NCBI RefSeq assembly: GCF_003996855.1
Contig: NZ_NRQY01000002.1
Coordinates: forward strand, 489,530-553,529
From: Morganella morganii
GTDB lineage: Bacteria > Pseudomonadota > Gammaproteobacteria > Enterobacterales > Enterobacteriaceae
Reading direction: 5' to 3'
DNA length: 64,000 nucleotides
In this document: piece after piece, positions 1 through 43,476 of the stretch
Layout of the letters: every line of letters starts with the position of its first letter
Position numbering within the stretch: the stretch's first letter is position 1
Translations under genes and position numbers: made by a program
Notes under the pieces: model-generated
Told to the model about the DNA's origin: nothing
The model's input: the letters and a program-made list of their open reading frames with translations, nothing else
Databases searched by the model: none

Positions 1-112
1 AAAAAAATGCTCCGGTCAGACGTTGTCTGACCGGAGCAGCTAATATTCAGCTAAATCCGATTACGTGAAGTAAAAGGTCTGAAAGATAGAACATCTTACC
101 TCTGTACCCTAC
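1..112 (-). ncRNA. spf: Spot 42 small RNA
   Basis: Read on the minus strand from 112, the sequence starts GTAGGGTACAGAGGTAAGAT and continues through the pyrimidine-rich unpaired regions of Spot 42. It ends in a 14-bp perfect hairpin (arms 8-21 and 25-38) followed by a run of seven T. The match to my memory of the E. coli RNA is close over the whole 5' two thirds; only the terminator stem differs in sequence. Spot 42 is an Hfq-dependent RNA that represses genes for secondary carbon-source use and galK, and in E. coli it is itself repressed by cAMP-CRP. In E. coli it lies directly downstream of polA on the same strand. Here it is also downstream of polA on the same strand, but a deformylase remnant and ERIC repeats lie between. 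A possible -10 (TAAAGT) is at 125-120. Nothing else was recognised in 113-394. Confidence 0.93.
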
Positions 113-394
113 GCGAATAACTTTACAGCAAATTTACGGACAAAAAAACCTTTTTTGTAATTTTCTTTCACATTAAGCACGATTCAGCTTGTCACAAAAC
201 CGTCAAACTCCCACCAAATGTTCTTTAATTACATATTTATGCGATCTGGATCTATAGGTAGTTCGTGGCTGCCCGCACAAAATAGCAACAAAACAGCACA
301 AATGATGCCGTTTTCGTACCATACTGTTATGATAATCTGAGCGCATCCGGGAGTACGTCTCCCCATTATTTTTATTTATATTAGTGAGTTAGCT

Positions 395-6187: not shown

Positions 6188-6407
6188 AATAAATTCCTTA
6201 TAAGCAAGATCGTAACACATTACCAATTATCCGCCGCTCCGGAAAGAACAGGACTGTCAGGATGCGTAAATATTGGCAGGCTGTAATAACTGCGGCGTAT
6301 TATCCGTGATTATCACGACCATTGCATTGATATTCGCGCTCACTATACCGGAATCCTTGTTAAGATAAGTTCAGAATATTTATCAGAGATTGTCAGAGAA
6401 ACTGAAA

Positions 6408-7505
6408 ATGATGATGCAACTCAGCGGCTGTATTCTTGCCGGCGGCCGGGCCACCCGGATGCAGGGACAGGACAAAGGCCTGGTATTACTGGGCGGGATT
6501 CCGCTTTATCAGCACAGTGTGAAACTGCTCGCCCCGCAGACAGACGACGTTTTTATCAATGCCAACCGCAATGTGCGGGATTATCACGCCACCGGTCTGC
6601 GGGTGGTGGCAGATACATTACCGGATTTCCCGGGCCCGCTTGCCGGCATGCTGGCCGGCCTTGAAAATGCCCTGCACGACTGGGTACTGTTTGTGCCGTG
6701 TGATGTGCCGCAGTTCCCGGCAGACCTGGCGGAGAAACTCTGGCAGCAGAAAGGTGATGCCCTGTGCGCTTATGCCGGTGACCACCAGCGGGCGCATCCG
6801 GCCTTTGCGCTGTGTCACCGCTCGCTGATCACTCCGCTGACAGAATACCTCACCGGCGGTGATCGCAAACTTCTGCTCTTTATGGATAAAATCGGTGCAA
6901 AAGCCGTCACATTTGATGCAAATCCCGGCGATTTCATCAATCTCAATACCCTTGCGGAGTGCCGGGAGTGGGAAAAACAGCACCGGCTGCCGCATCCGGT
7001 GCCGCTGCTGGCAGTCACCGCCTACAGCGGCACCGGCAAAACCACCCTGCTGAAAAAGCTGATCCCGCAGTTGCGGGAAAGCGGACTGCGCATTGGTCTG
7101 GTTAAACACACGCACCACGATATGGATGTCGATACCCCGGGGAAAGACAGCTATGAGCTGCGAAAAGCGGGGGCTTATCAGACCCTGGTGGTCAGTCAGG
7201 CGCGGTTTGCGCTGATGACAGAAACCCCGGACGGTGCGGAGCCGGACCTGACGCAACTGGCCGCCCGCTTTGATACGCGGGAGCTGGATCTTATCCTAGC
7301 AGAAGGGTTTAAGGGCGAATCTGTGCCGAAAATCGCCCTGTTCCGTGATGTGACTGACCGCCCGTACCAGACACTGCTGGATGAATTTGTTATTGCGTTT
7401 GCTTCAGACAAGCCACGGCAGAATGTCACTGTGCCGCAGCTGGATATCAACAATATCACCGCCATCCGCGACTTTGTTATCAGCTGGCTGGAAAATAATC
7501 CGTAA
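6408..7505 (+). CDS. mobA: Fused molybdenum cofactor guanylyltransferase MobA and adaptor MobB
   Basis: MobA attaches GMP to molybdopterin to make the guanine-dinucleotide cofactor used by DMSO-reductase-family enzymes. MobB is a GTP-binding partner. Here both are one 365-residue protein. MobA covers residues 1 to about 193 with the nucleotidyltransferase signature LAGGRATRM near residue 10 and the DFPGPLAGM region. MobB begins at about 199 with a P-loop AYSGTGKTT at 205-213, then KHTHHDMDVD and the Walker B-like LILAEGFK. There is no stop and no obvious ribosome site at the junction, whereas E. coli has two genes. The start is one of three consecutive ATG codons from 6408; an upstream TTG at 6390 is possible. 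It is alone on its strand and followed by a long hairpin. Confidence 0.93.
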   Translation: MMMQLSGCILAGGRATRMQGQDKGLVLLGGIPLYQHSVKLLAPQTDDVFINANRNVRDYHATGLRVVADTLPDFPGPLAGMLAGLENALHDWVLFVPCDVPQFPADLAEKLWQQKGDALCAYAGDHQRAHPAFALCHRSLITPLTEYLTGGDRKLLLFMDKIGAKAVTFDANPGDFINLNTLAECREWEKQHRLPHPVPLLAVTAYSGTGKTTLLKKLIPQLRESGLRIGLVKHTHHDMDVDTPGKDSYELRKAGAYQTLVVSQARFALMTETPDGAEPDLTQLAARFDTRELDLILAEGFKGESVPKIALFRDVTDRPYQTLLDEFVIAFASDKPRQNVTVPQLDINNITAIRDFVISWLENNP

Positions 7506-13367: not shown

Positions 13368-13442
13368 GATTTTTTAAGATAATCACCTCATCATTCTTAC
13401 CCCTATAGTCTCCGGATGAATTACATCCCATTCACCGGAGAC

Positions 13443-15227
13443 ATGTTATTGAAAACAATATTTAGTATATGGATATCATTGCTGCTCAGCTTCCCCGTCT
13501 GCGCCGCTGTTCTTCTCGATGGTAAAACACTGACCCCCACTCTGATTGCCCGTGTTGCTGATGGTGAGCCTGTCAGCATTGCGCCGGATTCACTGGTCTC
13601 TGTGCGCCGCTCACATGAGATTCTGATAAAAACCACTGGTACAGAGCAACCGGTATATGGCCTGACACGGGGTGTCGGCCTGAATAAAGACAAAAAAGTG
13701 AATATGCCCGCCACAGAATTTAATCTGCATTTACTTCGTGCTCATGGCGGAGGAACAGGAAAACCGCTGAGTATCCGGCAAACCCGGGCGGTTATGGTAA
13801 CGCGGCTTAATATGCTGCTGACAGGCGGCAGTGGCGCACATCCTGATCTGGCCGGGATGTATCTCCGTTTCCTCAATCAGTTTATTACACCCCGGGTTCT
13901 GTCCGCAGGTTCTGTCGGAGAGGCAGATATCACACAGCTCAGCCATATCGGACTGGCTATGTCAGGGGAAGGTGATGTGGATTATCAGGGAAAACAGATG
14001 ACTGCCGCAGATGCACTAAAAACGGCCGGTATTCCTCTTTTCAGACCTTCAGCAAAAGATGCGTTGTCTATTATCAGTTCCAATGCGGTTTCATCCGCCA
14101 TGGCCGCACTCGCACTGTATGATGCCGCCCGTCTGACTGATTTAAGCTTTGCTGTTTATGCTCTGGCGCTGGAGGCACTTAACGGCAACATTCATCCTTT
14201 CACCGCAGAAGTATTATTACAACGACCTTATCCCTCCGTGACTGAAAGCGGACAGATACTCTGTTTGCTGCTCAGAGGTTCATCACTGTCAGAACAGGAT
14301 CCTGACCGCCGGTTGCAGGATCCTCTCAGTTTTCGTTCTGCCCTCTTTTTTCTGACCGATTTAAGAGACAGTTACCAGCGTGCATACCGCCGGTTACTTA
14401 TTCAACTTAACAGCGCCGACGATAATCCGGTGGTTATTCCTCCCGGTAAAAATTACCCCGCCGGAGCGGTTATTCCCTCCGCCAATTTCGAACCGCTGCC
14501 ATGGGTATCTGCTTTTGAGCAGCTCAGTCTGTCTGTCGCCCGCTATTCTCTGCTGAGCGCGCAACAACTGGTCGTATTAAACACCCCTGCATTTACCGGA
14601 TTGAGCCGTTTTCTGGCAACAGAGAAAACCGTGCATGCCTTCGGCGCGATTGAAAAAGATATGATAGCGCTCGCTTTGCATAATAAAAGTCTGGCAATGC
14701 CGCTTTCAATGGATTATCTGCCTGTCGCCGGAGGTATTGAAGATATCGCCACCCGGGCTCTCCCGGTGATGCAACATTTGCAGCAACAAATTGATAACTG
14801 TTATGAATTATTGAGTATTTTACTTATTCACAGTGCACAGGCGATTGATCTGCGCAGACAACAGAATCCGCATTTCAGGCTCGCACAACACACCGCTTCA
14901 CTCTATGATGTGATAAGGCATCTGCCGCTTTTATGCAGTCTGACAAAGCAATACGGCCTGATGTTCAGACACTTGCCGGTATCCTCCGGGATCATCATAA
15001 CGACGTCATCAGGAGCCTCTATGCCATTCATCAATATCCGCATCACCAAAGAGGGTGCGACCGCAGAGCAAAAACAAAAACTGATTGAAGGTGCCACACA
15101 ATTACTCGTTGATGTGCTGGGAAAAAACCCGGCCTCAACCTTTGTGATTATTGATGAGGTGGAAACCGACAACTGGGGTGTCGGCGGGCAGACCGTAACA
15201 AAACTGCGCGCTGACGCGAAGAAATAA
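13443..15227 (+). CDS. Secreted aromatic amino acid lyase-like protein, reading frame runs into a tautomerase
   Basis: The fold is that of the histidine/phenylalanine ammonia-lyase superfamily: VYGLTRGVG (YGxNTGFG), KDALSIISSNA (KEGLALING), RLQDPLSFR, NSADDNPVV, SANFEPLPW and GGIEDIATR are recognisable in order. A signal peptide (LLLSFPVCAA) implies export. The site that normally cyclises to the MIO cofactor, GSVGASGD, reads GSVGEAD (residues 156-162), so the Ala-Ser-Gly triad is absent and a normal lyase mechanism is doubtful. The open frame continues in frame into a 4-OT tautomerase at 15021, but after about 14932 the +1 frame encodes a better lyase ending (QSDKAIRPDVQTLAGILRD, stop 15086-15088). 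A one-base loss in the T run 14929-14932 is therefore suspected. Start 13443 is chosen for the signal peptide; 13416 is in frame. Confidence 0.75.
   Translation: MLLKTIFSIWISLLLSFPVCAAVLLDGKTLTPTLIARVADGEPVSIAPDSLVSVRRSHEILIKTTGTEQPVYGLTRGVGLNKDKKVNMPATEFNLHLLRAHGGGTGKPLSIRQTRAVMVTRLNMLLTGGSGAHPDLAGMYLRFLNQFITPRVLSAGSVGEADITQLSHIGLAMSGEGDVDYQGKQMTAADALKTAGIPLFRPSAKDALSIISSNAVSSAMAALALYDAARLTDLSFAVYALALEALNGNIHPFTAEVLLQRPYPSVTESGQILCLLLRGSSLSEQDPDRRLQDPLSFRSALFFLTDLRDSYQRAYRRLLIQLNSADDNPVVIPPGKNYPAGAVIPSANFEPLPWVSAFEQLSLSVARYSLLSAQQLVVLNTPAFTGLSRFLATEKTVHAFGAIEKDMIALALHNKSLAMPLSMDYLPVAGGIEDIATRALPVMQHLQQQIDNCYELLSILLIHSAQAIDLRRQQNPHFRLAQHTASLYDVIRHLPLLCSLTKQYGLMFRHLPVSSGIIITTSSGASMPFINIRITKEGATAEQKQKLIEGATQLLVDVLGKNPASTFVIIDEVETDNWGVGGQTVTKLRADAKK
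15021..15227 (+). CDS. 4-oxalocrotonate tautomerase family protein
   Basis: This 68-residue protein starts MPFINIRITKEGATAEQK. The 4-OT family uses Pro1, exposed after removal of Met, as general base, and has the shape seen here, including STFVIIDEVETDNWGVGG in the C-terminal half. It needs a free N-terminus, so I treat it as separately translated although it is in frame with the lyase reading frame. AGGAG at 15011-15015 sits five bases before the ATG, an almost ideal ribosome binding site. The substrate is unknown. It lies between the lyase-like gene and a serine hydrolase gene, all on one strand, and is probably co-transcribed with them. Confidence 0.85.
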   Translation: MPFINIRITKEGATAEQKQKLIEGATQLLVDVLGKNPASTFVIIDEVETDNWGVGGQTVTKLRADAKK

Positions 15228-19038: not shown

Positions 19039-20037
19039 TTATGCGGATATTTTTGCCTGTTCTTCCCTGTCCACCGCAAAACAGGCAATTAGCTGTCCGC
19101 CGTAGGATTTCAGCTCCGGACGGAACTGGGTACAGGTGCCGAATGCATGGCGGCAGCGGGCGGCAAAGGCGCATCCCGGCGGCGGATTCAGCGGGCTCGG
19201 CAGCTCACCGGTCAGTTTTATCCGCTCGCGGCGCTGTGCCGGATTCAGCCGTGGTGTCGCGGAAAGCAACGCCTGTGTATAAGGATGACGCGGATTCTCA
19301 AAAATCTGCGCTTTAGTGCCTTTTTCCACACAACGCCCCAGATACATCACCATCACATCATCCGCTATATGCTCCACCACGGACAAATCATGAGAAATAA
19401 ACACATATGACAGACCCAGTTCATCCTGGAGATCCATCATCAGGTTCAGTACCTGAGCGCGGACTGACACATCCAGCGCGGATACCGGCTCATCCGCAAT
19501 CACCACATCCGGGTCCAGCATCAGACCCCGGGCAATCGCAATACGCTGGCGCTGACCACCGGAAAACATATGAGGATAACGGCTGTAATGCTTGGTTTTC
19601 AGACCGACTTTTGCCATCATCGCCAGCACTTTCTCTTTGCGCTCAGCCGCACTGAGTGATGTATTGATAACCAGCGGTTCTTCCAGAATCTGCCCGACTT
19701 TTTTGCGCGGATTGAGCGAACCGTACGGGTTCTGGAACACAATCTGGATTTTTTGCCGCCGCAGTTTCTCCGTATGTTTATCCGCCACCAGCAGGTTCTG
19801 CCCCTGATAAAACAGTTCCCCGCCGGTTGGTTTTTCAATCATGGTCAGCAAACGGCCGAGTGTCGATTTCCCGCAGCCGGACTCCCCGACCACGGCCAGG
19901 GTTTTCCCCCGGTTCAGATCAAACGACACGCCGTCGAGGGCTTTCACCATCCGCTCCGGTGAGAAAAAAACCTTCTTCACCGGATAATATTTTTTCAGAT
20001 CACTGACATGCAACAGTGGCTGCGTGGTCTCACTCAT
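19039..20037 (-). CDS. dppF: Dipeptide ABC transporter ATP-binding subunit DppF
   Basis: DppF is one of two cytosolic ATPases powering the dipeptide importer DppABCDF. From the ATG at 20037 it is 332 residues. Walker A is GESGCGKST, the Q-loop is [15 protein letters not shown], the ABC signature is [15 protein letters not shown], and Walker B is [13 protein letters not shown]. The C-terminal oligopeptide-transporter extension with [17 protein letters not shown], whose cysteines bind a 4Fe-4S cluster in some relatives, is present. The start overlaps the dppD stop by eight bases, implying coupled translation. It is last gene of the operon. Confidence 0.96.
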
Positions 20038-21013
20038 AGCCCGGTCTCCCTTCATCATCCAGCGGGGTATGACATTTCACCTGACGCGCCCCGACAGTAC
20101 GCAGTTCCGGTTCCGTGCTGCGGCATAAATCCGTGGCATATGGGCAGCGCGGGTTCAGCAGACAGCCTTCCGGCCGGTCATATTTTCCGGGCACAACACC
20201 TGGCAGTGATGCCAGACGGCTCTTGTTTCCGGCGAATTCCGGCAGCGCCCGCAGCAGTGCCTGAGTATACGGATGACGCGGTGCACGGAAAATATCCGAA
20301 GCTTTGCCGGACTCCGCCACCTGCCCCGCATACATCACAATAATATGGTGAGCGGCTTCCGCCACCAGCGCGAGGTCATGGGTGATAAGCACCAGTGCCA
20401 TATTTTCCTGCTGCTGTAACTCCAGCAGCAGTTCAATAATCTGTGCCTGGATGGTCACATCCAGCGCCGTTGTCGGCTCATCCGCAATCAGCAGCTTCGG
20501 ACGGCAGGCAATCGCCATCGCGATCATCACCCGCTGGCTCATCCCGCCGGATAACTGGTGCGGATAGACATCCAGCCGCGATTTCGGATCAGGAATACCG
20601 ACCAGTGTCAGCAGGTCGATAGTCCGCTGTAACCGGGTTCTCCTGTTACCGCCCTGGTGAACTTTCAGGGCTTCCATAATCTGATATCCCACGGTATAGC
20701 AGGGATTCAGGCTGGTCATCGGGTCCTGGAAAATCATTGCCACATCTGCGCCCACCAGCTCGCGCCGCTCTTTTTCAGAGATAGTCAGCAGATGACGGCC
20801 GTCAAACTCGAGGTTATCCGCCATCACCCGGCCGGGAAAATCAATCAGCCCCATAATCGCCAGCGAACTGACAGATTTACCGGAGCCGGATTCCCCGACA
20901 ATCCCGAGCACCTCGCCTTCCTCAACCTGATAACTGATCCGGTCAACGGCGCGGAATGGCATCTCTTTTTCACCGAAGTGAACAGATAATTTATCAACTG
21001 TTAATAACGCCAT
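20030..21013 (-). CDS. dppD: Dipeptide ABC transporter ATP-binding subunit DppD
   Basis: DppD is the second ATPase of the dipeptide importer and works as a heterodimer with DppF. The product is 327 residues, as in E. coli. Walker A is GESGSGKSV, the Q-loop is [15 protein letters not shown], the signature is [15 protein letters not shown], and Walker B is [12 protein letters not shown], followed by the switch histidine in LITHDLALV. The C-terminal [13 protein letters not shown] cysteine loop is present. It lies 11 bp after dppC and overlaps dppF. Confidence 0.96.
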
Positions 21014-21024
21014 GTCTGCACCTC

Positions 21025-21927
21025 TTACTGCTTAAGCTTAGGATCAAGGGCATCACGCAATCCGTCGCCCATCAGGTTAAACGCCAGTACCGTCAGTAAA
21101 ATCGCCAGGCCCGGGAAGGTCACCACCCACCACGCACTCTGCGTAAACTGTAAAACATCGGACAGCATGGTTCCCCACTCCGGTGTCGGCGGCTGTGCAC
21201 CCATCCCGAGGAAACCTAATGCGGCCATGTCCAGAATGGCGTTGGAGAAGCCCAGCGATGCCTGCACAATCAGCGGTGCCAGGCAGTTCGGCAGAATATT
21301 GACAAACATCTGGCGCACCGGGCCTGCACCCGCCACCGCAGAGGCGGTCACATAATCACGGCTCACTTCTGTCAGCACCGCCGCGCGGGTCAGACGGATA
21401 TAGTGCGGCAGTGCCACAAAGGTCAGTGCCAGCGAGGCGTTAACAATCGACGGACCGAAAATCGCCACCAGCACCAGCGCCAGCAGCAGGCTCGGCAGTG
21501 CCAGCATAATATCGACGATACGCATGATCAGCGCATCAACCCAGCCGCCGAAATACCCGGCGGCAAGACCAATCACCACACCCAGCAGCAGCGACAGCGC
21601 CACTACCAGACAACCGACCAGCAGTGAAAGCCGGGCGCCGAACATCAGGCGCGACAATATATCGCGGCCGATATCATCAGTACCGAGAATAAACTGCCAT
21701 GAGCCGCCCTCCTGCCAGACCGGCGGCTGTAATAAATGGTCACGGAACTGCTCATCCGGCAGATGCGGGACAAGCAGCGGGGCAAAAACGGCGATCAGCA
21801 GCATCGCCAGGATATAAATCAGGCCGATCAGTGCGCCTTTATTACGCCGGAAGTAGTGCCAGAATTCGCGCAGCGGAGAAAGCGGCTCAGGCGCGCGGGT
21901 CACGGTAGTATTTGTCGTCTCAGACAT
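21025..21927 (-). CDS. dppC: Dipeptide ABC transporter permease DppC
   Basis: DppC is an inner-membrane permease subunit forming the pore with DppB. The product is 300 residues. It has the N-terminal cytosolic segment with [19 protein letters not shown], about six membrane segments, and the EAA loop that docks the ATPases ([20 protein letters not shown]). It sits 12 bp downstream of dppB and 11 bp upstream of dppD, within one operon. Confidence 0.96.
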
Positions 21928-21939
21928 TGTGCGCTCCTG

Positions 21940-22959
21940 TTATTTTTTATGGCGTATCCGCGGGTTAACAACGCCGTAGAGTAAATCCACGCACAGGTTA
22001 ACCAGGATAATCAGAATAGCGATCAGCAAAACACCGCCCTGCACAACCGGATAGTCGCGGCGCTGAAGGGCATCAATCAGCCAGCGGCCGATACCGGGCC
22101 AGGAAAAGATAGTTTCAGTCAGAATCGCTCCGGCCAGCATCACACCGACCTGTAAGCCGATAACCGTCACCACCGGCAGCAGTGCGTTGCGCAGTGTATG
22201 CACCACAATCACGCGGAGGCGGCTCAGCCCTTTGGCACGGGCGGTACGGATATAATCCTCACCCAGCACTTCCAGCATTGCCGAGCGGGTCATACGGACA
22301 ATCACCGCGAGCGGGATAGTGCCGAGCACAATTGACGGCAGAATAAGATGCATCACCGCATCATGAAAATCGCCGTCCTCACCCCAGATCAGGGTATCAA
22401 TCAGCATAAATCCGGTCAGCGGCTGAGTATCATCCAGGAACACACTGTCCGATAAGCGCCCTGAAACCGGTGTCAGATCGAGATTTACGGACACCAGCAT
22501 GATTAGCATGATGCCCCACCAGAAAATCGGCATCGAATAGCCGGTCAGGGAGATCCCGATAGCGGTATGATCAAAGACCGACCCCCGTTTGACCGCCACC
22601 AGCACCCCGACCGGAATCCCGACCGATATAGCGAAAATCATGGCACAGGCCGCGAGTTCCAGCGTGGCTTTAAAGCGGGGAACAAATTCGTCCCATACCG
22701 GCTGACGGCTTTTCAGAGAGAGGCCGAGGTCACCGTGCAGGACACCATTGATATAATGAAGGTACTGTTTCCAGTAGGGCTGATCCAGCCCCAGGGCCGC
22801 CATCAGCTGGGCGTGGCGTTCAGGGGAGATCCCCCGCTCACCTGCCATGATAGTGACCGGGTCTCCCGGGATCAGATGAACAAATATAAACGTCAGTAAC
22901 GTAATACCGATAAACGTCGGTATTACCATCCCGACCCGTCGGAGGATAAATTGCAGCAT
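21940..22959 (-). CDS. dppB: Dipeptide ABC transporter permease DppB
   Basis: DppB is the partner permease of DppC. The product is 339 residues, as in E. coli. The N-terminal LQFILRRVGMVIPTFIGITLLTFIFVHLIPGDP is typical of the OppB/DppB family, and the EAA loop reads YIRTARAKGLSRLRVIVVHTLRNA. It follows the dppA segment by 200 bp containing a GC-rich hairpin, as in other enterobacteria where dppA is made in excess over the membrane genes. Confidence 0.96.
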   Translation of the reverse strand: MLQFILRRVGMVIPTFIGITLLTFIFVHLIPGDPVTIMAGERGISPERHAQLMAALGLDQPYWKQYLHYINGVLHGDLGLSLKSRQPVWDEFVPRFKATLELAACAMIFAISVGIPVGVLVAVKRGSVFDHTAIGISLTGYSMPIFWWGIMLIMLVSVNLDLTPVSGRLSDSVFLDDTQPLTGFMLIDTLIWGEDGDFHDAVMHLILPSIVLGTIPLAVIVRMTRSAMLEVLGEDYIRTARAKGLSRLRVIVVHTLRNALLPVVTVIGLQVGVMLAGAILTETIFSWPGIGRWLIDALQRRDYPVVQGGVLLIAILIILVNLCVDLLYGVVNPRIRHKK

Positions 22960-23159: not shown

Positions 23160-26063
23160 TTATTTTTCGATAGAGACATTGTCAAAGTGGTGTTTACCCA
23201 GCGGATCCACCACATAGCCTTTCACTTCTTTGCGCACCGGCTCAAACACCGTGGAGTGTGCAACAATCAGTGCAGGTGCCTGCTCTTTCATCACTACCTG
23301 AGCCTGCTCATACAGTTTGGCGCGCTCTTTCGGATCAGCCGTGGTTCGTGCAGGCAGAATGATATTTTCAAAGGACTGATCACACCATTTCGAGTAGTTC
23401 GAACCCTGTTCTTTGGCCGCACAACTGAAGAGTGTGGCGAAGAAGTTATCCGGGTCCCCGTTGTCACCGGTCCAGCCCATCATGACAGTCTGAGGCTCAC
23501 CCGCTTTCGCGCGCTTGAGGTACTCACCCCACTCATAAGTCACGATTTTGGCTTTCACACCGACTTTCGCCCAGTCAGCCTGGATCATCTCAGCCATACG
23601 GCGGGCGTTCGGGTTATACGGACGCTGAACCGGCATCGCCCACAAATCGATTTCAACACCGTTTTCCACACCCGCTTCTTTCAGCAGGGCTTTGGCTTTT
23701 TCCGGATCATACGGATAATCTTCAATACTGTTGTTATAGCCCCACATGGTCGGCGGGATCAGGTTTTTCGCTTTCTGGCCTGCCCCCTGATAAACCGCGT
23801 CAATAATGGCATCTTTATTAACGGCCATATTCAGCGCCTGACGGACTTTCACGTTATCCAGTGGTTTTTTCGTGACGTTATAGGAGAGATAGCCGACATT
23901 CAGCCCCGGCTGCTCTTTCAGAACAATATTTTTATCCGCACGCATGCGCTCCAGGTCTGCCGGGTTCGGGTACGGCATTACCTGGCACTCATTTTTCTGT
24001 AACTTGGCATAGCGGACAGAGGCATCCGGCGTAATAGAGAAGACCAGGCGGTCAATTTTCGGTTTACCGTTCCAGTAATCTTCGTTGGCTTTATACAGAA
24101 TACGGGAATCTTTCTGGTACTGCTGTAACACAAACGGCCCCGTACCGATCGGGTTCAGATCCACTTTCTCCGGCGTACCGGCTTTCAGCATCTGGTCAGC
24201 ATATTCCGCGGAAAGAATTGAGGCGAAGTCCATCCCGAGGTTTGCCAGGAATGGTGCTTCTGAGCGGCTCAGCTGAAAACGGACGGTGTTGTCATCAACT
24301 TTCTCAACTTTGTCGATGATTTTGTCCATATCCATGCCGCTGAAATATTCATAACTGCCGCCGGATACTTTGTGATACGGGTTATCCGCGTTTTTCTGAC
24401 GATCAAAAGTAAAGACCACATCATCCGCATTAAAATCACGGGTTGGTTTGAATTCCTTGCTGCTGTGGAATTTCACCCCTTTGCGCAGATGAAAAGTATA
24501 GGTTTTCCCGTCTTCGCTTACATCCCAGGATTCAGCCAGACCCGGCTCCAGTTCAGTGGTACCGGCTTTAAACTCCACCAGCCGGTTATACAACGGCACG
24601 GAACTGGCATCATAAGTGGTTCCCGAAGTGAACAACTGCGGGTTAAACCCTTCCGGTGATCCCTCTGAACAAAAAACCAGCGTTCCCGCCGCATTGACGC
24701 TTGCAGACACCGCCAGATACAGGTTGTGATCAGGCAGTACCTGCTGCCAGACCACTTCATTACGGCTGATAAAGGCCCGTGCGGCGCTCATACTGTGAGA
24801 AAACGGATAACCGCGCACCGAATAACGACCACTCAAAGATTCATAATCCATCTCATCCGCTTTATCTGCATTGACAGAGCCGCGCATAACATTCTCATAA
24901 TAAAATACCTGACCAGCCAGGCGGAACGGCACGGTCAGTGTTGTTTCCGCCATCAGTTGCCGGGTGTGTTTCAGCTTTTTTTCTGTTACCGGCAGAGCAC
25001 CAAAACGATTCAGTGAATGCTTATACTGCACCTGATACTGAAAGGTAAAATCCGGCAGATACCAGCGGTGATTCAGCCCGGTATTCCAGTAAACAGAACG
25101 GCGCTCAGGTAATGTCAGCGGAGCATGTCCGAATGTGACATGCCGGGTTACCGCAGAAATTCCGCTGCTGAGGGTAATATCATGTGCCGGAGTCAGAAGC
25201 AGCTTACGGCCGAGGTTCAGATCCAGCGTTTTGCTGCGGGTAAAATAGTCCAGTGAGCCCCGGTATACCGGGTATTGCTGCTTTTGTTCAATATAACTGC
25301 CGCCTGCCGTAAACTCCCAGTGCCGGAAAGGGAGCCGGTATTGCCCATAAATAAATTTCACCCCGGCAGAATGATCGCTGTCCATATCCCGCAGAGTATA
25401 AATAAACAGGCGATCATACAGTTGCAACGGATTTTCAATACCGAGCCGGTTACTTATCTGCCGGCTGCCGGTTGACGGACTACCGTAATTGTTGATTTCA
25501 AGTGAACCGTTTATGCTGCGTTTTTTCTGCTGTGTAATCGTGATCACACTGTTGCCGGGATTCAGCGGATCGGGCTCAACCGCCGCCTGAACACCCAGCC
25601 CGGACAGTTGATTCAGATGGGTCATTCCCAGTTCGGTATCGCGGATATTCAGTTGTCCGTCCGCCCGCTGCGGAAAAATCAGATTCAGGCCGAATCGTGT
25701 ATCCCCGCTCTCCTTATCGCGGTAACCGCTCAGATAACCGGGCAGATAGTGAAGAGTCAGCGTACCGTCACTGACATTCTGCGGCGGCACACTGATTTGT
25801 GCCGTGATAAAACCCGCCTGATGTACCGCGGACTCCAGTGTCATCACCGCCTCCGCCATCTGTTCTGATGTCAGGCAGCGCCCGGTCACGTTCTTTTCAA
25901 ATTCATCCGCCAGATAAGACGGCCCGATTAATTCACGCTGCGTAATCACCACCTCTGACAGTATGGCGCAGGAGGCCGGAGAAACCGGCGAAGAAGTGTA
26001 TGTGCTGCCCCATGCACAGCCACAAGCCGCTATCGCAGCAGCAGCGATTGTTTTTTTTATCAT
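23160..26063 (-). CDS. dppA: Chimera: truncated TpsB outer-membrane transporter fused to dipeptide-binding protein DppA
   Basis: A single 967-residue frame. Residues 1 to about 450 are a two-partner-secretion TpsB transporter (ShlB/HpmB/FhaC type): signal peptide MIKKTIAAAAIAACGCAWGS, POTRA-like region (GRCLTSEQMAEAVMTLESAV, GFITAQISVPPQNVSDGTL), and barrel strands up to SGRYSVRGY with the Omp85-family VRGY at 416-419. It breaks off about 30 residues later, before the last strands. Residues 451-458 (AVSASVNA) look like the end of a DppA signal peptide, and 459-967 are a full mature DppA (GTLVFCSEGSPEGFNPQ onward), matching E. coli along its length. DppA binds dipeptides, and haem, in the periplasm for DppBCDF. 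Its own start, signal-peptide front and promoter are missing, so free DppA should not be made normally. A misassembly must be excluded. Confidence 0.85.
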   Translation of the reverse strand: MIKKTIAAAAIAACGCAWGSTYTSSPVSPASCAILSEVVITQRELIGPSYLADEFEKNVTGRCLTSEQMAEAVMTLESAVHQAGFITAQISVPPQNVSDGTLTLHYLPGYLSGYRDKESGDTRFGLNLIFPQRADGQLNIRDTELGMTHLNQLSGLGVQAAVEPDPLNPGNSVITITQQKKRSINGSLEINNYGSPSTGSRQISNRLGIENPLQLYDRLFIYTLRDMDSDHSAGVKFIYGQYRLPFRHWEFTAGGSYIEQKQQYPVYRGSLDYFTRSKTLDLNLGRKLLLTPAHDITLSSGISAVTRHVTFGHAPLTLPERRSVYWNTGLNHRWYLPDFTFQYQVQYKHSLNRFGALPVTEKKLKHTRQLMAETTLTVPFRLAGQVFYYENVMRGSVNADKADEMDYESLSGRYSVRGYPFSHSMSAARAFISRNEVVWQQVLPDHNLYLAVSASVNAAGTLVFCSEGSPEGFNPQLFTSGTTYDASSVPLYNRLVEFKAGTTELEPGLAESWDVSEDGKTYTFHLRKGVKFHSSKEFKPTRDFNADDVVFTFDRQKNADNPYHKVSGGSYEYFSGMDMDKIIDKVEKVDDNTVRFQLSRSEAPFLANLGMDFASILSAEYADQMLKAGTPEKVDLNPIGTGPFVLQQYQKDSRILYKANEDYWNGKPKIDRLVFSITPDASVRYAKLQKNECQVMPYPNPADLERMRADKNIVLKEQPGLNVGYLSYNVTKKPLDNVKVRQALNMAVNKDAIIDAVYQGAGQKAKNLIPPTMWGYNNSIEDYPYDPEKAKALLKEAGVENGVEIDLWAMPVQRPYNPNARRMAEMIQADWAKVGVKAKIVTYEWGEYLKRAKAGEPQTVMMGWTGDNGDPDNFFATLFSCAAKEQGSNYSKWCDQSFENIILPARTTADPKERAKLYEQAQVVMKEQAPALIVAHSTVFEPVRKEVKGYVVDPLGKHHFDNVSIEK
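24699..24731 (-). other. Fusion junction between tpsB and dppA
   Basis: On the minus strand the TpsB strand sequence (LPDHNLYLA) passes straight into the DppA signal-peptide end (VSASVNA) with no stop, start or ribosome site. CTGGCGGTG at 24716-24708 could encode LAV in either parent, making it a plausible microhomology at the crossover. The cleavage-like SVNA is kept, but no basic n-region precedes it. Confidence 0.7.
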
Positions 26064-26188: not shown

Positions 26189-26219
26189 AAAAAACCCTGC
26201 TGTAAAAGCAGGGTTTTTC
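26189..26219. terminator. tRNA-Pro terminator
   Basis: AAAACCCTGC (26191-26200) pairs with GCAGGGTTTT (26208-26217), with A and T runs on both sides. On the minus strand it lies seven bases beyond the CCA end of tRNA-Pro. Confidence 0.85.
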
Positions 26220-26225
26220 TTAAAA

Positions 26226-26302
26226 TGGTCGGCGAGATAGGATTCGAACCTACGACCCACTGGTCCCAAACCAGTTGCGCTACCAAGCTGCGCTACTCGC
26301 CG
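26226..26302 (-). tRNA. proM: tRNA-Pro (anticodon TGG)
   Basis: The minus strand starts CGGCGAGTAGCGCAGCTTGG and ends GTTCGAATCC...CGCCGACCA, a 77-base cloverleaf with encoded CCA. The anticodon stem ACTGG/CCAGT encloses the loop TTTGGGA, giving anticodon TGG for CCN proline codons. The 5'/3' acceptor stem CGGCGAG/CTCGCCG pairs fully. The sequence resembles E. coli proM. In E. coli the tRNA upstream of dppA is proK (CGG); here the position is the same but the anticodon differs. The symbol is by sequence resemblance. Confidence 0.95.
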
Positions 26303-26343: not shown

Positions 26344-26569
26344 GAGCTGAAACCCGAATTTTTTGTTTTTCACCGCATTATTTTTATTTCGCCGGTTTAT
26401 CAGCCAAATTTCTGTTTTTTATCTTCTTATTGGTAAACGATATGTTTTTTATTTGCTATCGGGATGCTGAAAACTGACAAAAAATAACCACGTCATTCAT
26501 ATCCGTCATCAGGGACTTTATTTATCCTGTCCGTGTTCTTTATACCTCAGCAACAACCAGGGAGTGGTT

Positions 26570-27661
26570 ATGCCAAAAATAGTAAAATTGTCCGTTATCA
26601 GCAGTGCCCTTTTACTCGCTCACGCCGCATCAGCCGCCGATATTACCGTTAATCCGGCGTCCGCAGAGACAACTCAGGTCGTCCGTCAGGGAAATAACAC
26701 AACCATTAATATCGCCCCGGCAAACACACACGGTGTTTCTTATAATGCCTATGATCAGTTTAACGTTGATAAAAATGGTGTGGTATTTAATAACCGGGAA
26801 TCCGGCGCCGGGACAATTATTAACGAAGTACTTTCAACCGAAAAATCACGCCTGAGCGGCAATATGCATGTGGATGGCAAAAAAGCCCATCTGATTATTG
26901 CCAACCCGAACGGCATTGCCTGTAACGGGTGCAGTGTTTCCGGTGTGAATAGTTTCAGTCTGGCCGCCGGTAATGTCAGTATGACACCGGACGGGCAATT
27001 TTCCGGTTACCGGAATATCAGCGGCAAAGTTCGTATGCTGAATACCGCAGAACAGCATTTTGCTGATACGGATAAACTCACATTAGTTGCCGCCGCCATT
27101 GATATGAAAAACAGCCAGCTCAAAACCAAAAACCTGGCAACGTATATCGGACATTATGATCTGGCAAAAACAACCAGCGGTCTTCGTGATTTAGAACTGA
27201 TCAATCCGGATTACTCTCTGGAAAACAGAAAAAATACCAATAACTTTCTGAATATCACAGCAAACAGCCATATCAAAGCGGATAATATGTATATTCATTC
27301 TGCTGCCGCGCAAATACGGAATGCAGGACAGATAACTATCGGGCCGGAATTGCAACTGACAGCCCCGGAAAAAACACCGATGTACGGCCATAACCAGCTG
27401 ACAATGGATCTGCATCATTCCATATTTGAAAATAAATCATCCGGTAAAATAAATACATTACTGATGAATACCATTATGAGTAACAGCAGCATTGAAAATA
27501 ATGGTCAGATGAAAACAAATTACCGTAATCCGAAAAGCCCGATCAGCGATTTCACACTGATTTTCGACGGCACAAATTATATCAGCGGAAAGCAGGATAT
27601 TGAGCTGAATAAAATGGATATCCGGCAAACTGAAGGGGCATTATTACTGTCGCCTGAGTAA
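26570..27661 (+). CDS. Short two-partner-secretion exoprotein (TpsA, filamentous haemagglutinin N-terminal domain)
   Basis: The product is 363 residues with signal peptide VISSALLLAHAASA. The TPS domain, recognised by a TpsB transporter during export, has the diagnostic NPNGI at 112-116, followed by a Cys pair (C118 and C121) as in ShlA/HpmA-type haemolysins. It also shows VNSFSLAAGN and repeating beta-strand turns (NLATYIGHYDL, NITANSHIKADNMYIHSAA). TpsA proteins are normally well over 1000 residues with a long beta-helix; this one ends soon after the TPS region with a terminator 5 bases on. Either it is a truncated remnant or a minimal exoprotein. It is divergent from the tpsB-dppA chimera, with tRNA-Pro between. 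AGGGAG precedes the ATG; a GTG at 26564 is also in frame. Confidence 0.82.
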   Translation: MPKIVKLSVISSALLLAHAASAADITVNPASAETTQVVRQGNNTTINIAPANTHGVSYNAYDQFNVDKNGVVFNNRESGAGTIINEVLSTEKSRLSGNMHVDGKKAHLIIANPNGIACNGCSVSGVNSFSLAAGNVSMTPDGQFSGYRNISGKVRMLNTAEQHFADTDKLTLVAAAIDMKNSQLKTKNLATYIGHYDLAKTTSGLRDLELINPDYSLENRKNTNNFLNITANSHIKADNMYIHSAAAQIRNAGQITIGPELQLTAPEKTPMYGHNQLTMDLHHSIFENKSSGKINTLLMNTIMSNSSIENNGQMKTNYRNPKSPISDFTLIFDGTNYISGKQDIELNKMDIRQTEGALLLSPE

Positions 27662-35538: not shown

Positions 35539-37644
35539 TTGTACCTGTTTGAAAGCCTGAACCATATTGTTAAGGATTATCTGCCGAAAGAGCAGATTGA
35601 TCTGTTAAAACAAGCCTATGTCGTTGCGCGGGATGCTCACGAAGGGCAGACCCGCTCCAGTGGCGAACCGTATATCACTCATCCGGTCGCGGTTGCCTGT
35701 ATCCTGGCCGAGATGCGTCTCGACCTCGAAACACTCATGGCAGCACTGCTGCACGACGTTATCGAAGATACACCTGCTACCTTTCAGGATATTGAACAAC
35801 TGTTCGGCACCACTGTTGCCGGGCTGGTGGAAGGCGTATCGAAGTTAGACAAACTGAACTTCCGCGATAAAAAAGAGGCTCAGGCTGAAAACTTCCGCAA
35901 GATGGTGATGGCGATGGTGAAAGACATCCGCGTCATTCTCATCAAGCTGGCAGACCGCACGCACAATATGCGCACGCTCGGGTCTCTGCGTCCCGATAAG
36001 CGCCGCCGTATTGCGCGCGAAACGCTTGAAATCTACAGTCCTCTGGCTCACCGTCTTGGTATCCACCATATCAAAACGGAGCTTGAGGAGCTGGGATTCG
36101 AAGCTCTTTACCCGAACCGCTACCGCGTCATCAAAGAAGTGGTGAAAGCAGCACGCGGCAACCGTAAGGAGATGATCCAGAAGATTTTATCTGAAATCGA
36201 AGGGCGTCTGACGGAAGCCGGTATCAGCTGCAAAGTCAGCGGGCGGGAAAAACATCTCTACTCCATCTACCGGAAAATGCACCTGAAAGAGCAGCGATTT
36301 CACTCGATCATGGACATTTATGCATTCCGCGTAATTGTGAGCAGTGTCGATACCTGTTACCGCGTACTGGGCCAGGTTCACGGCCTCTACAAACCACGTC
36401 CCGGCCGCGTCAAAGATTATATCGCCATCCCGAAAGCCAACGGCTATCAGTCATTACACACCTCCCTTATCGGCCCTCACGGAGTACCGGTGGAAGTGCA
36501 GATCCGTACCGAAGATATGGATCAGATGGCAGAAATGGGGGTGGCGGCACACTGGGCTTATAAAGAGCACGGTGAATCCGGCACCACCGCACAGGTGCGT
36601 GCTCACCGCTGGATGCAGAGCCTGATAGAACTTCAGCAAAGCACCGGCAACACCTTTGAATTTATTGAGAGCGTGAAATCGGATCTCTTCCCGGATGAGA
36701 TTTATGTCTTCACCCCGGAAGGGCGGATTGTTGAGCTGCCGACCGGCGCCACGCCGGTAGATTTCGCCTATGCCGTGCATACGGACATCGGCCACTCCTG
36801 TGTCGGCGCGCGTGTTGACCGCCAGCCGTATCCGCTCTCCCAGCAACTGACCAGCGGACAAACCGTTGAAATTATTACCGCACCGGGTGCAAGACCGAAT
36901 GCCGCATGGCTGAACTTTGTTGTCAGCTCAAAAGCCCGGGCGAAAATCCGTCAGCTGCTGAAAAACCTCAAGCGGGATGATTCCGTCAATCTCGGCCGTC
37001 GCCTGCTTAACCATGCACTCGGTAACGGCCGTAAGATCACGGATATCCCGCAGGAAAATATCAGCCGTGAGCTGGTACGGATGAAACTGGCCACTCTGGA
37101 TGATCTTCTGGCGGAAATCGGCCTGGGAAATGCCATGAGTGTGGTGGTTGCCCGTAACCTGCTTAATGCGCCGGAGAACAGCACCGAAGAGAATTCCGCC
37201 CGCAAGCTTCCTATCAAAGGCGCGGACGGGGTGCTTATCACCTTCGCCAAATGCTGCCGTCCGGTACCGGGTGACCCGATTATCGCCCATATCAGTCCGG
37301 GTAAAGGGCTGGTTATCCACCATGAATCCTGCCGCAATATCCGCGGATATGAAAAAGAGCCGGAAAAATTCATGGCTGTTGAGTGGGATAGTGACATCGA
37401 CACTGATTTTATTGCTGAAATCAAAGTGGATATGTTTAACCACCAGGGCGCACTGGCTAACCTGACTGCCGCAATTAATGATGCCAACTCCAGTATTCAG
37501 AGCATGAATACCGAGGAGAAAGATGGCCGCGTTTACTGCGCCTTTATCCGCCTGACCGCAAAAGACCGTATCCAGCTTGCGAATATTATGCGTAAGATCC
37601 GCATTATGCCGGATGTCCTGCGCGTCAGCCGCAACCGGAATTAA
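35539..37644 (+). CDS. spoT: Bifunctional (p)ppGpp synthetase/hydrolase SpoT
   Basis: SpoT hydrolyses and weakly synthesises ppGpp, integrating carbon, fatty-acid and other starvation signals. The product is 701 residues. In order: the HD hydrolase domain with H48 and H72-D73 (LLHDVIEDT), the synthetase domain with GREKHLYSIYRKM and YKPRPGRVKDYIAIPKANGYQSLHT, the TGS domain (DEIYVFTPEGRIVELPTGATPVDFAYAVH), and the C-terminal ACT domain. The start is TTG at 35539 with AAGGTAGG upstream; E. coli spoT also uses a TTG at the same MYLFESL. It is 17 bp after rpoZ. Confidence 0.97.
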   Translation: MYLFESLNHIVKDYLPKEQIDLLKQAYVVARDAHEGQTRSSGEPYITHPVAVACILAEMRLDLETLMAALLHDVIEDTPATFQDIEQLFGTTVAGLVEGVSKLDKLNFRDKKEAQAENFRKMVMAMVKDIRVILIKLADRTHNMRTLGSLRPDKRRRIARETLEIYSPLAHRLGIHHIKTELEELGFEALYPNRYRVIKEVVKAARGNRKEMIQKILSEIEGRLTEAGISCKVSGREKHLYSIYRKMHLKEQRFHSIMDIYAFRVIVSSVDTCYRVLGQVHGLYKPRPGRVKDYIAIPKANGYQSLHTSLIGPHGVPVEVQIRTEDMDQMAEMGVAAHWAYKEHGESGTTAQVRAHRWMQSLIELQQSTGNTFEFIESVKSDLFPDEIYVFTPEGRIVELPTGATPVDFAYAVHTDIGHSCVGARVDRQPYPLSQQLTSGQTVEIITAPGARPNAAWLNFVVSSKARAKIRQLLKNLKRDDSVNLGRRLLNHALGNGRKITDIPQENISRELVRMKLATLDDLLAEIGLGNAMSVVVARNLLNAPENSTEENSARKLPIKGADGVLITFAKCCRPVPGDPIIAHISPGKGLVIHHESCRNIRGYEKEPEKFMAVEWDSDIDTDFIAEIKVDMFNHQGALANLTAAINDANSSIQSMNTEEKDGRVYCAFIRLTAKDRIQLANIMRKIRIMPDVLRVSRNRN

Positions 37645-43346: not shown

Positions 43347-43476
43347 TCATCTGTTTAACCGCGTGACCGGAAACGGTCACGCGGACTGCTCTGTGCGGAA
43401 AAACCGCGATAATCCTTGTCACCATAAAGAGCCTCACGCTAGTATGCCCTCAGGATTATCTCTCGGGGAGCGCATT

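What the first reader, a model, noticed from the sequence alone, without database searches (positions are those of the whole stretch)
23160..26063. In-frame fusion of a truncated TpsB transporter to DppA
Seen: one uninterrupted 967-codon frame whose first 450 residues are a two-partner-secretion transporter and whose last 509 are mature dipeptide-binding protein. The join falls inside the DppA signal peptide, keeping its cleavage-like end (VSASVNA) but losing its start and basic n-region. Known: TpsB proteins are outer-membrane barrels with the C-terminus as last strand; DppA is a soluble periplasmic receptor. Inference: a deletion, perhaps at the microhomology CTGGCGGTG, removed the tpsB 3' end and the dppA promoter and start. 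The result would disable both proteins, or make a barrel-anchored or abnormally processed receptor. The dppBCDF genes would then depend on the tpsB promoter.
Basis: partly seen in the sequence, partly recalled or inferred. Interest (0 to 1): 0.85.

Follow-up and report, generated by a model that had tools for sequence, protein, structure and literature searches.

The report
Deletion-made transporter–receptor gene fusion
In one Morganella-like bacterium a roughly 700-base deletion appears to have welded the gene for an outer-membrane secretion pore to its neighbour, the gene for a dipeptide-catching protein, most likely a recent accident that breaks the pore rather than a new kind of machine.

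Summary
Confirmed: window 23160-26063 (-) is one 967-codon frame. Residues 1-450 are a TpsB (ShlB/FhaC-type) transporter; 459-967 are mature DppA. The surroundings match Morganella morganii. In 6 of 6 Morganella genomes held, tpsB and dppA are separate same-strand neighbours; the window lacks 694-698 bp relative to four of them and 766 bp relative to a fifth. Lost are TpsB's last 65 residues (most of strand 13 and strands 14-16 of 16 by my count on a relative's model), its stop, the conserved dppA leader, and DppA's first 21 residues. Relatives support 5-7 bp of junction homology, not 9. dN/dS of both parts is about that among relatives, so the event is recent or DppA is still under selection. 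No such fusion was among the 120 best hits in either of two searches of a 5.8-billion-protein set. Best reading: a strain-specific deletion that kills the transporter and leaves DppA as an abnormal, probably Sec-exported C-terminal domain of uncertain function. Misassembly is unlikely but not excluded. Interest is modest.

The parts
23160..26063 (-). TpsB-DppA fusion ORF, 967 codons plus stop
24714..26063 (-). TpsB-derived part, codons 1-450 (signal sequence, POTRA region, 12 complete barrel strands and the start of the 13th by homology)
   Evidence: Pfam POTRA_2 and ShlB; alignment to G003, G004, G006; strand positions from the model of the intact relative L003, my count
25737..25907 (-). POTRA_2 domain, residues 53-109
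24711..25556 (-). ShlB-type barrel domain, residues 170-451; the match stops 26 positions before the profile's end
24710..24716 (-). Deletion junction CTGGCGG, shared in part by the tpsB and dppA sides of relatives
24690..24716 (-). Remnant of the DppA signal peptide (LAVSASVNA), codons 450-458, without n-region and most of the h-region
   Evidence: comparison with G003/G004 DppA starts; hydropathy maximum 1.36 versus 2.36 for the native G003 signal
23163..24689 (-). Mature DppA, codons 459-967
   Evidence: SBP_bac_5; match to 1dpp residues 2-507; dN/dS 0.017-0.024 against four relatives
21940..22959 (-). dppB, permease, intact
   Evidence: 98-99% identical protein in four relatives
21025..21927 (-). 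dppC, permease, intact
20030..21013 (-). dppD, ATPase, intact
19039..20058 (-). dppF, ATPase, intact
26226..26302 (-). tRNA-Pro(TGG), upstream of tpsB on the same strand
   Evidence: same place in Morganella relatives scanned
26189..26218 (-). Hairpin with T run between tRNA-Pro and tpsB, probable tRNA terminator, so the fusion likely needs its own promoter downstream of it
   Evidence: read from the sequence; conserved in G003, G004, G006; not reported by the terminator scan
26564..27661 (+). TpsA-type partner (TPS domain), 365 codons from GTG, divergent from tpsB; presumably left without its own transporter
   Evidence: PF05860; similar 363-aa allele in G006

Best explanation
In an ancestor of this Morganella strain about 0.7 kb was lost between adjacent same-strand genes tpsB and dppA, joining tpsB codon 450 in frame to dppA codon 22. 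Shown: the chimeric frame, the junction, and what is missing relative to relatives. Inferred: it is transcribed from the tpsB promoter, translated from the tpsB start and sent to Sec by the TpsB signal sequence. The barrel part has 12 full strands and no terminal strand, so it should not close or be inserted by BAM, and TpsB transport is lost, leaving the divergent TpsA without its pore. The C-terminal DppA domain can probably fold in the periplasm, tethered to or trimmed from the misfolded barrel segment, at a level set by tpsB and no longer by its own promoter or GcvB. Net effect: loss of the transporter and probably weak, altered or absent dipeptide-receptor activity. It is recent and strain-specific, not an evolved bifunctional protein.
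For: Open frame and domains. 6 of 6 Morganella genomes have the genes apart. Length missing is 694, 698, 696 and 696 bp against G003, G004, G005, G006 and 766 bp against G001; G002 not measured. The missing segment has no copy in the window beyond short matches (best 24 bp, E 8.5e-4). The model of intact L003 TpsB (mean pLDDT 81.4) has 16 barrel strands by my count, leaving out two 3-residue strands near loop 6; strand 13 is 446-457 and strands 14-16 lie in 470-514, so the join at 450 falls within strand 13. Its best PDB matches are CdiB and FhaC. 25 of 25 rows of the TpsB alignment end in Y or F (the short ORFs of L008 and L064 were not put in); the fusion ends in K. The last 200 or so columns of the dppA leader are 94-98% invariant over four genomes. 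GcvB is present in 6 of 6, with a 12-13 nt complementary run in the dppA leader of 6 of 6. dN/dS is about that among relatives for both parts. tpsB is frameshifted in G005 while its dppA is open, so this transporter can be lost. No fused relative among the 120 listed hits or. Of 42 window ORFs with a match in G003, 38 align in one piece.
Against: No reads could be mapped, so an assembly or chimeric-read error remains possible. A one-base length difference has fused a second pair of ORFs 10 kb away (13416-15227), which could hint at error in this record. The AlphaFold model of the fusion itself was uninformative (mean pLDDT 44.8), so folding of each part in the chimera is untested. The GcvB run is not beyond chance alone: in 4 of 6 genomes at least one of 200 shuffles equalled or exceeded it. 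Low dN/dS could also mean that the fusion has been functional for some time. Two relatives (G001, G003) have a second, 26%-identical TpsB-like gene, so TpsA need not be wholly without a pore if such a gene exists here.
Confidence: 0.72

Rival explanations
1. The junction is a sequencing or assembly artefact; the real chromosome has separate tpsB and dppA like its relatives.
For: 6 of 6 Morganella genomes have the genes separate and no copy of the fusion protein was among the 120 listed hits or; a second ORF fusion lies nearby.
Against: A 5-7 bp shared word is too short for a typical assembler collapse (inference); the missing DNA is not elsewhere in the window; both flanks are clean and the join is in frame; 38 of 42 matched ORFs align in one piece.
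Confidence: 0.15
2. DppA is still made at near-normal size from an internal start in the fusion, so dipeptide uptake is nearly normal.
For: In-frame ATG at 24791 and GTG at 24755 and 24710 precede the DppA part.
Against: By eye none has a clear Shine-Dalgarno sequence in the 20 bases upstream, and the products would have a weak hydrophobic core (maximum 1.36 against 2.36 natively); the native leader with its start is gone.
Confidence: 0.08
3. The chimera is a selected gain of function: a receptor made from another promoter, freed from GcvB, and tethered to an outer-membrane or periplasmic TpsB remnant.
For: In-frame join, dppA codons conserved with dN/dS 0.017-0.024, loss of the leader with the GcvB-complementary run, TpsB signal sequence retained.
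Against: An incomplete barrel without its terminal strand should not be inserted; a one-in-three in-frame chance needs no selection; the fusion was seen in the window only.
Confidence: 0.1

Closest known systems
Intact Morganella TpsB (ShlB/FhaC/HecB family, 515-517 aa; clusters P0122 and P0123)
   Same: Residues 1-456 or 457 of the fusion match G003, G004 and G006 in one piece at 89-91% identity, with POTRA and ShlB domains
   Different: Fusion lacks the last 65 residues: most of barrel strand 13, strands 14-16 and the aromatic end
CdiB and FhaC (6wil, 6wim, 4ql0)
   Same: Best fold matches of the intact relative; TpsB fold with 16-strand barrel (PMC7644211, start of abstract in the listing)
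   Different: The fusion cannot supply 16 strands and carries a 509-residue soluble domain at its C-terminus
DppA, periplasmic dipeptide-binding protein (1dpp, 8z1y)
   Same: Residues 461-966 align with 1dpp residues 2-507
   Different: No signal peptide, start codon or leader of its own; attached to 450 foreign residues
DppA chimeric ORFs P0009 and P0010
   Same: Single sequences with full DppA joined in frame to other coding sequence
   Different: DppA is at the N-terminus and keeps its signal peptide; the partner is a piece of DppA itself (P0010) or carries a PF00291 domain (P0009), not TpsB

Membership tests
TpsB / ShlB-FhaC two-partner secretion transporter | POTRA domain(s) before the barrel | tested here: met
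   PF08479 POTRA_2, residues 53-109, above its cut-off
TpsB / ShlB-FhaC two-partner secretion transporter | Complete 16-strand barrel ending in a terminal strand | tested here: not met
   ShlB match ends at profile position 285 of 311; strands 14-16 and most of 13 in the intact relative's model lie beyond the join
TpsB / ShlB-FhaC two-partner secretion transporter | C-terminal aromatic residue | tested here: not met
   25 of 25 aligned homologues end in Y or F; the fusion ends in K
TpsB / ShlB-FhaC two-partner secretion transporter | Neighbouring TpsA partner with TPS domain | tested here: met
   ORF 26564-27661 has PF05860
TpsB / ShlB-FhaC two-partner secretion transporter | Secretes its TpsA | not testable with these tools
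   needs a bench assay
DppA dipeptide-binding protein (SBP family 5) | Full SBP_bac_5 domain and mature chain | tested here: met
   profile 1-366 of 368; 1dpp residues 2-507
DppA dipeptide-binding protein (SBP family 5) | Own cleavable N-terminal signal peptide and start | tested here: not met
   first 21 residues of native DppA and the leader missing; residual hydrophobic stretch weak
DppA dipeptide-binding protein (SBP family 5) | Gene cluster with dppBCDF | tested here: met
   dppB, C, D, F intact downstream
DppA dipeptide-binding protein (SBP family 5) | Binds and delivers dipeptides | not testable with these tools
   needs uptake or binding assay

The most novel reading that the evidence does not exclude
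The strain carries a working chimera: the TpsB signal sequence exports a 967-residue chain whose DppA domain acts as a periplasmic, possibly envelope-tethered, receptor expressed from the tpsB promoter and freed from GcvB control, so that one deletion traded a secretion pore for rewired dipeptide uptake.
Probability: 0.1. Interest if true: 0.55.

Novelty: new member of a known kind. Interest (0 to 1): 0.3.

Why it matters
It looks like a clean natural example of how two unrelated neighbouring genes become one frame by a single deletion, with the separate arrangement preserved in 6 of 6 related genomes examined. If real and expressed, it tests what happens when a soluble receptor is hung on an unfinished outer-membrane barrel and cut off from its own leader. 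If it proves an artefact, it is a caution for annotating fusion proteins.

Tried and rejected
G006 seemed at first to hold a 1251-codon joined frame; translation of its loci shows stops between the two genes, so it is not a second fusion.

Relaxed selection on dppA after the fusion was tested by dN/dS and private codon changes and not found: window dppA has 32 synonymous and 4 non-synonymous private codons; the other four genomes have 26/3, 18/2, 10/1 and 9/2. M. psychrotolerans G001 and G002 were left out of that count as too distant.

An AlphaFold model of the fusion failed (pLDDT 44.8), probably because TpsB rows were misaligned in the mixed alignment (TpsB rows only 6-22% identical to the fusion); not used.

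RNA duplex folding of GcvB with the leader, done without orienting all GcvB loci, was discarded; a contiguous-complementarity count replaced it. There the observed runs are 12-13 nt, shuffle means 8.4-8.6 and shuffle maxima 12-14; in 4 of 6 genomes a shuffle equalled or exceeded the observed run, so the match is suggestive only.

Microhomology as proof of mechanism was rejected: repeats of 7 bp or more are frequent between the two genes.

Promoter scans were weak: three promoter-like sites in the intact leader region of L003 against 1.1 expected, none between tRNA-Pro and the fusion start.

cannot speak on the fusion: its length limit (0.55-1.75 of 515 aa) leaves out a 967-aa protein.

Paper searches: 'Morganella morganii' with 'dppA' gave 2 papers, with 'two-partner secretion' 7, DppA fusion terms 1, general deletion-fusion terms 17 of which 12 were listed. 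From titles and starts of abstracts none appears to describe this fusion. Only listings and passages of PMC5422565 and PMC8292188 were seen.

Full report
What is there. Window 23160-26063 (-) is one uninterrupted 967-codon frame. Pfam finds a POTRA_2 domain (53-109), a ShlB transporter domain (170-451) and a nearly complete SBP_bac_5 domain (504-884, profile 1-366 of 368). Residues 461-966 align with solved E. coli DppA (1dpp) residues 2-507. dppB, dppC, dppD and dppF follow intact; a tRNA-Pro and a divergent TpsA-type ORF (26564-27661) lie upstream. The names dppB-F, glyS and glyQ are my reading of the translations and gene order.

Where it comes from. The best matches are Morganella: against M. 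morganii FAM24679 (L003) and Mm1 (L004) the dppA-dppF and glyS-glyQ flanks are 93-95% identical in DNA, the tpsB-tpsA stretch 89%. No whole genome is held for the window itself. The window is about as far from G003, G004, G005 and G006 as most of these are from each other (G005 and G006 are closer to one another): dppA dS 0.35-0.39 against 0.16-0.36. It may therefore be a separate Morganella lineage.

The ancestral state. In the genus search 6 of 6 genomes carry both halves at separate places. In the four named ones tpsB has 515-516 codons and dppA 538-539, with 430-502 bp between. G005's tpsB is itself frameshifted. TpsB-like ORFs also lie between tRNA-Pro and dppA in L005 (Providencia), L013 (Moellerella) and L037 (Proteus), where both were checked; L006, L007, L009 and L011 have such ORFs but were not scanned for tRNA; in L008 and L064 the ORF at that place is shorter, 444 and 422 codons. 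So the neighbourhood is old. A family-wide search of 198 genomes matched 132; among the matches listed, none spans both halves in one open frame (the listing was cut).

The deletion. Aligned to the M. morganii-like relatives, the window follows tpsB through CTGTATCTGGC and dppA from CTGGC onward. Lengths missing are 694 (G003), 698 (G004), 696 (G005), 696 (G006) and 766 bp (G001); G002 was not measured. Between tpsB and dppA of the same genome the shared word at the join is 5 bp in G003, G004 and G006, 6 in G005 and 2 in the more distant G001; against the window a tpsB side matches at most through CTGGCGG, 7 bp of overlap with the dppA sides. Such repeats are common, so the mechanism stays open. 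The missing segment has no copy in the window (best match 24 bp, E 8.5e-4).

What was lost. The intact relative's model (L003 TpsB, mean pLDDT 81.4) shows 16 barrel strands by my count, leaving out two 3-residue strands at 408-410 and 425-427. The join at residue 450 falls in strand 13 (446-457), so the rest of it and strands 14-16 are lost. Fold matches are CdiB and FhaC. 25 of 25 aligned homologues end in Y or F (several rows are near-copies, and L008 and L064 were not included); the fusion does not. The literature describes a signal in the last strand as engaging BAM (PMC10945584, start of abstract in the listing; PMC8292188, passages, chiefly on the mitochondrial machinery). That a barrel without it fails and is degraded is inference. 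On the dppA side the loss covers the leader, whose last 200 or so columns are 94-98% invariant over four genomes, and the first 21 residues of DppA. GcvB is present in 6 of 6 Morganella genomes, with a 12-13 nt complementary run in the dppA leader of 6 of 6; shuffled leaders average 8.4-8.6 nt, but in 4 of 6 genomes the best of 200 shuffles reached or passed the observed run. The window lacks this stretch. GcvB regulation of dppA is known in E. coli (PMC3658540, abstract in the listing); here it is inferred.

Could DppA be made normally? Three in-frame candidate starts lie within 35 codons before the mature part (three more up to 54 codons before), none with a clear ribosome site by eye, and the residual hydrophobic stretch is weak. 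The TpsB signal sequence is present, so Sec export of the whole chain is the likelier route.

Age and selection. dN/dS of the dppA part against four relatives is 0.017-0.024, versus 0.009-0.021 among those four; for the tpsB part 0.096-0.127 versus 0.091-0.111. There is no clear sign of decay. That fits a recent event, or continuing selection on DppA; the data do not separate these. In-frame joining has a one-in-three chance by itself.

How unusual. In two searches of about 5.8 billion proteins (clustered at 90%) no TpsB-DppA fusion, nor the window's own protein, was among the 120 best hits shown of 6403 and 7932; a full copy should have ranked first. The two longer hits inspected, P0009 and P0010, are other chimeras. 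Intact TpsB clusters of 515 and 517 aa hold 96 and 324 member sequences (P0122, P0123).

Reliability of the record. I took 46 of the 66 ORFs (leaving out ORFs overlapping these, mostly on the opposite strand) and compared them with 72 kb of G003: 42 have a match above 60% identity and 38 of these align in one piece. The four without a match are three near or beyond the ends of the reference and the TpsA ORF. The four not in one piece are this fusion, a second fused ORF at 13416-15227 (only its tautomerase part matches G003), a spoT-like ORF (name from recall) that is whole in the window and in three frames in G003, and a start-region split at 43363. So the window is not error-ridden, but without reads the junction cannot be proved.

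Other transporters. G001 and G003 have a second TpsB-like gene of about 26% identity; whether the window's genome has one, and whether it could serve this TpsA, is unknown.

Verdict. The most likely reading is a recent single-strain deletion that inactivates the TpsB transporter and leaves DppA as an abnormally produced C-terminal domain. The chimera is new as an individual sequence but of a known kind: neighbouring genes joined by deletion. Interest 0.3.

Noticed in passing
window 13416-15227 (+): A second fused ORF: aromatic amino acid lyase (PF00221, 40-501) joined to a tautomerase (PF01361, 537-595). In G006 and G004 the two lie in different frames as neighbours; a one-base length difference in the lyase 3' end puts them in one frame in the window.
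   Followed up: partly
window 26564-27661 and loci L003, L004, L140: TpsA comes in at least two alleles at this place: 363-365 aa in the window and G006, 410-425 aa in G003 and G004, alike in the first part but diverging later.
   Followed up: partly
G005 tpsB (L092, L099): tpsB is frameshifted in another Morganella genome while its dppA is open, so the transporter seems dispensable.
   Followed up: partly
window 35539-37644 versus the matching stretch of G003 (L148): A spoT-like 701-codon ORF (name from recall) is whole in the window but aligns in three frames in the complete M. morganii FAM24679 genome, perhaps an error there.
   Followed up: no
window 1-122 (-): Spot 42 sRNA (RF00021, 112.8 bits) at the window edge.
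   Followed up: no
window 6390-7505 (+): ORF of 371 codons whose sequence looks, from memory of these proteins, like MobA and MobB in one frame; it aligns in one piece at 95% identity in G003, so it is not peculiar to this strain.
   Followed up: no
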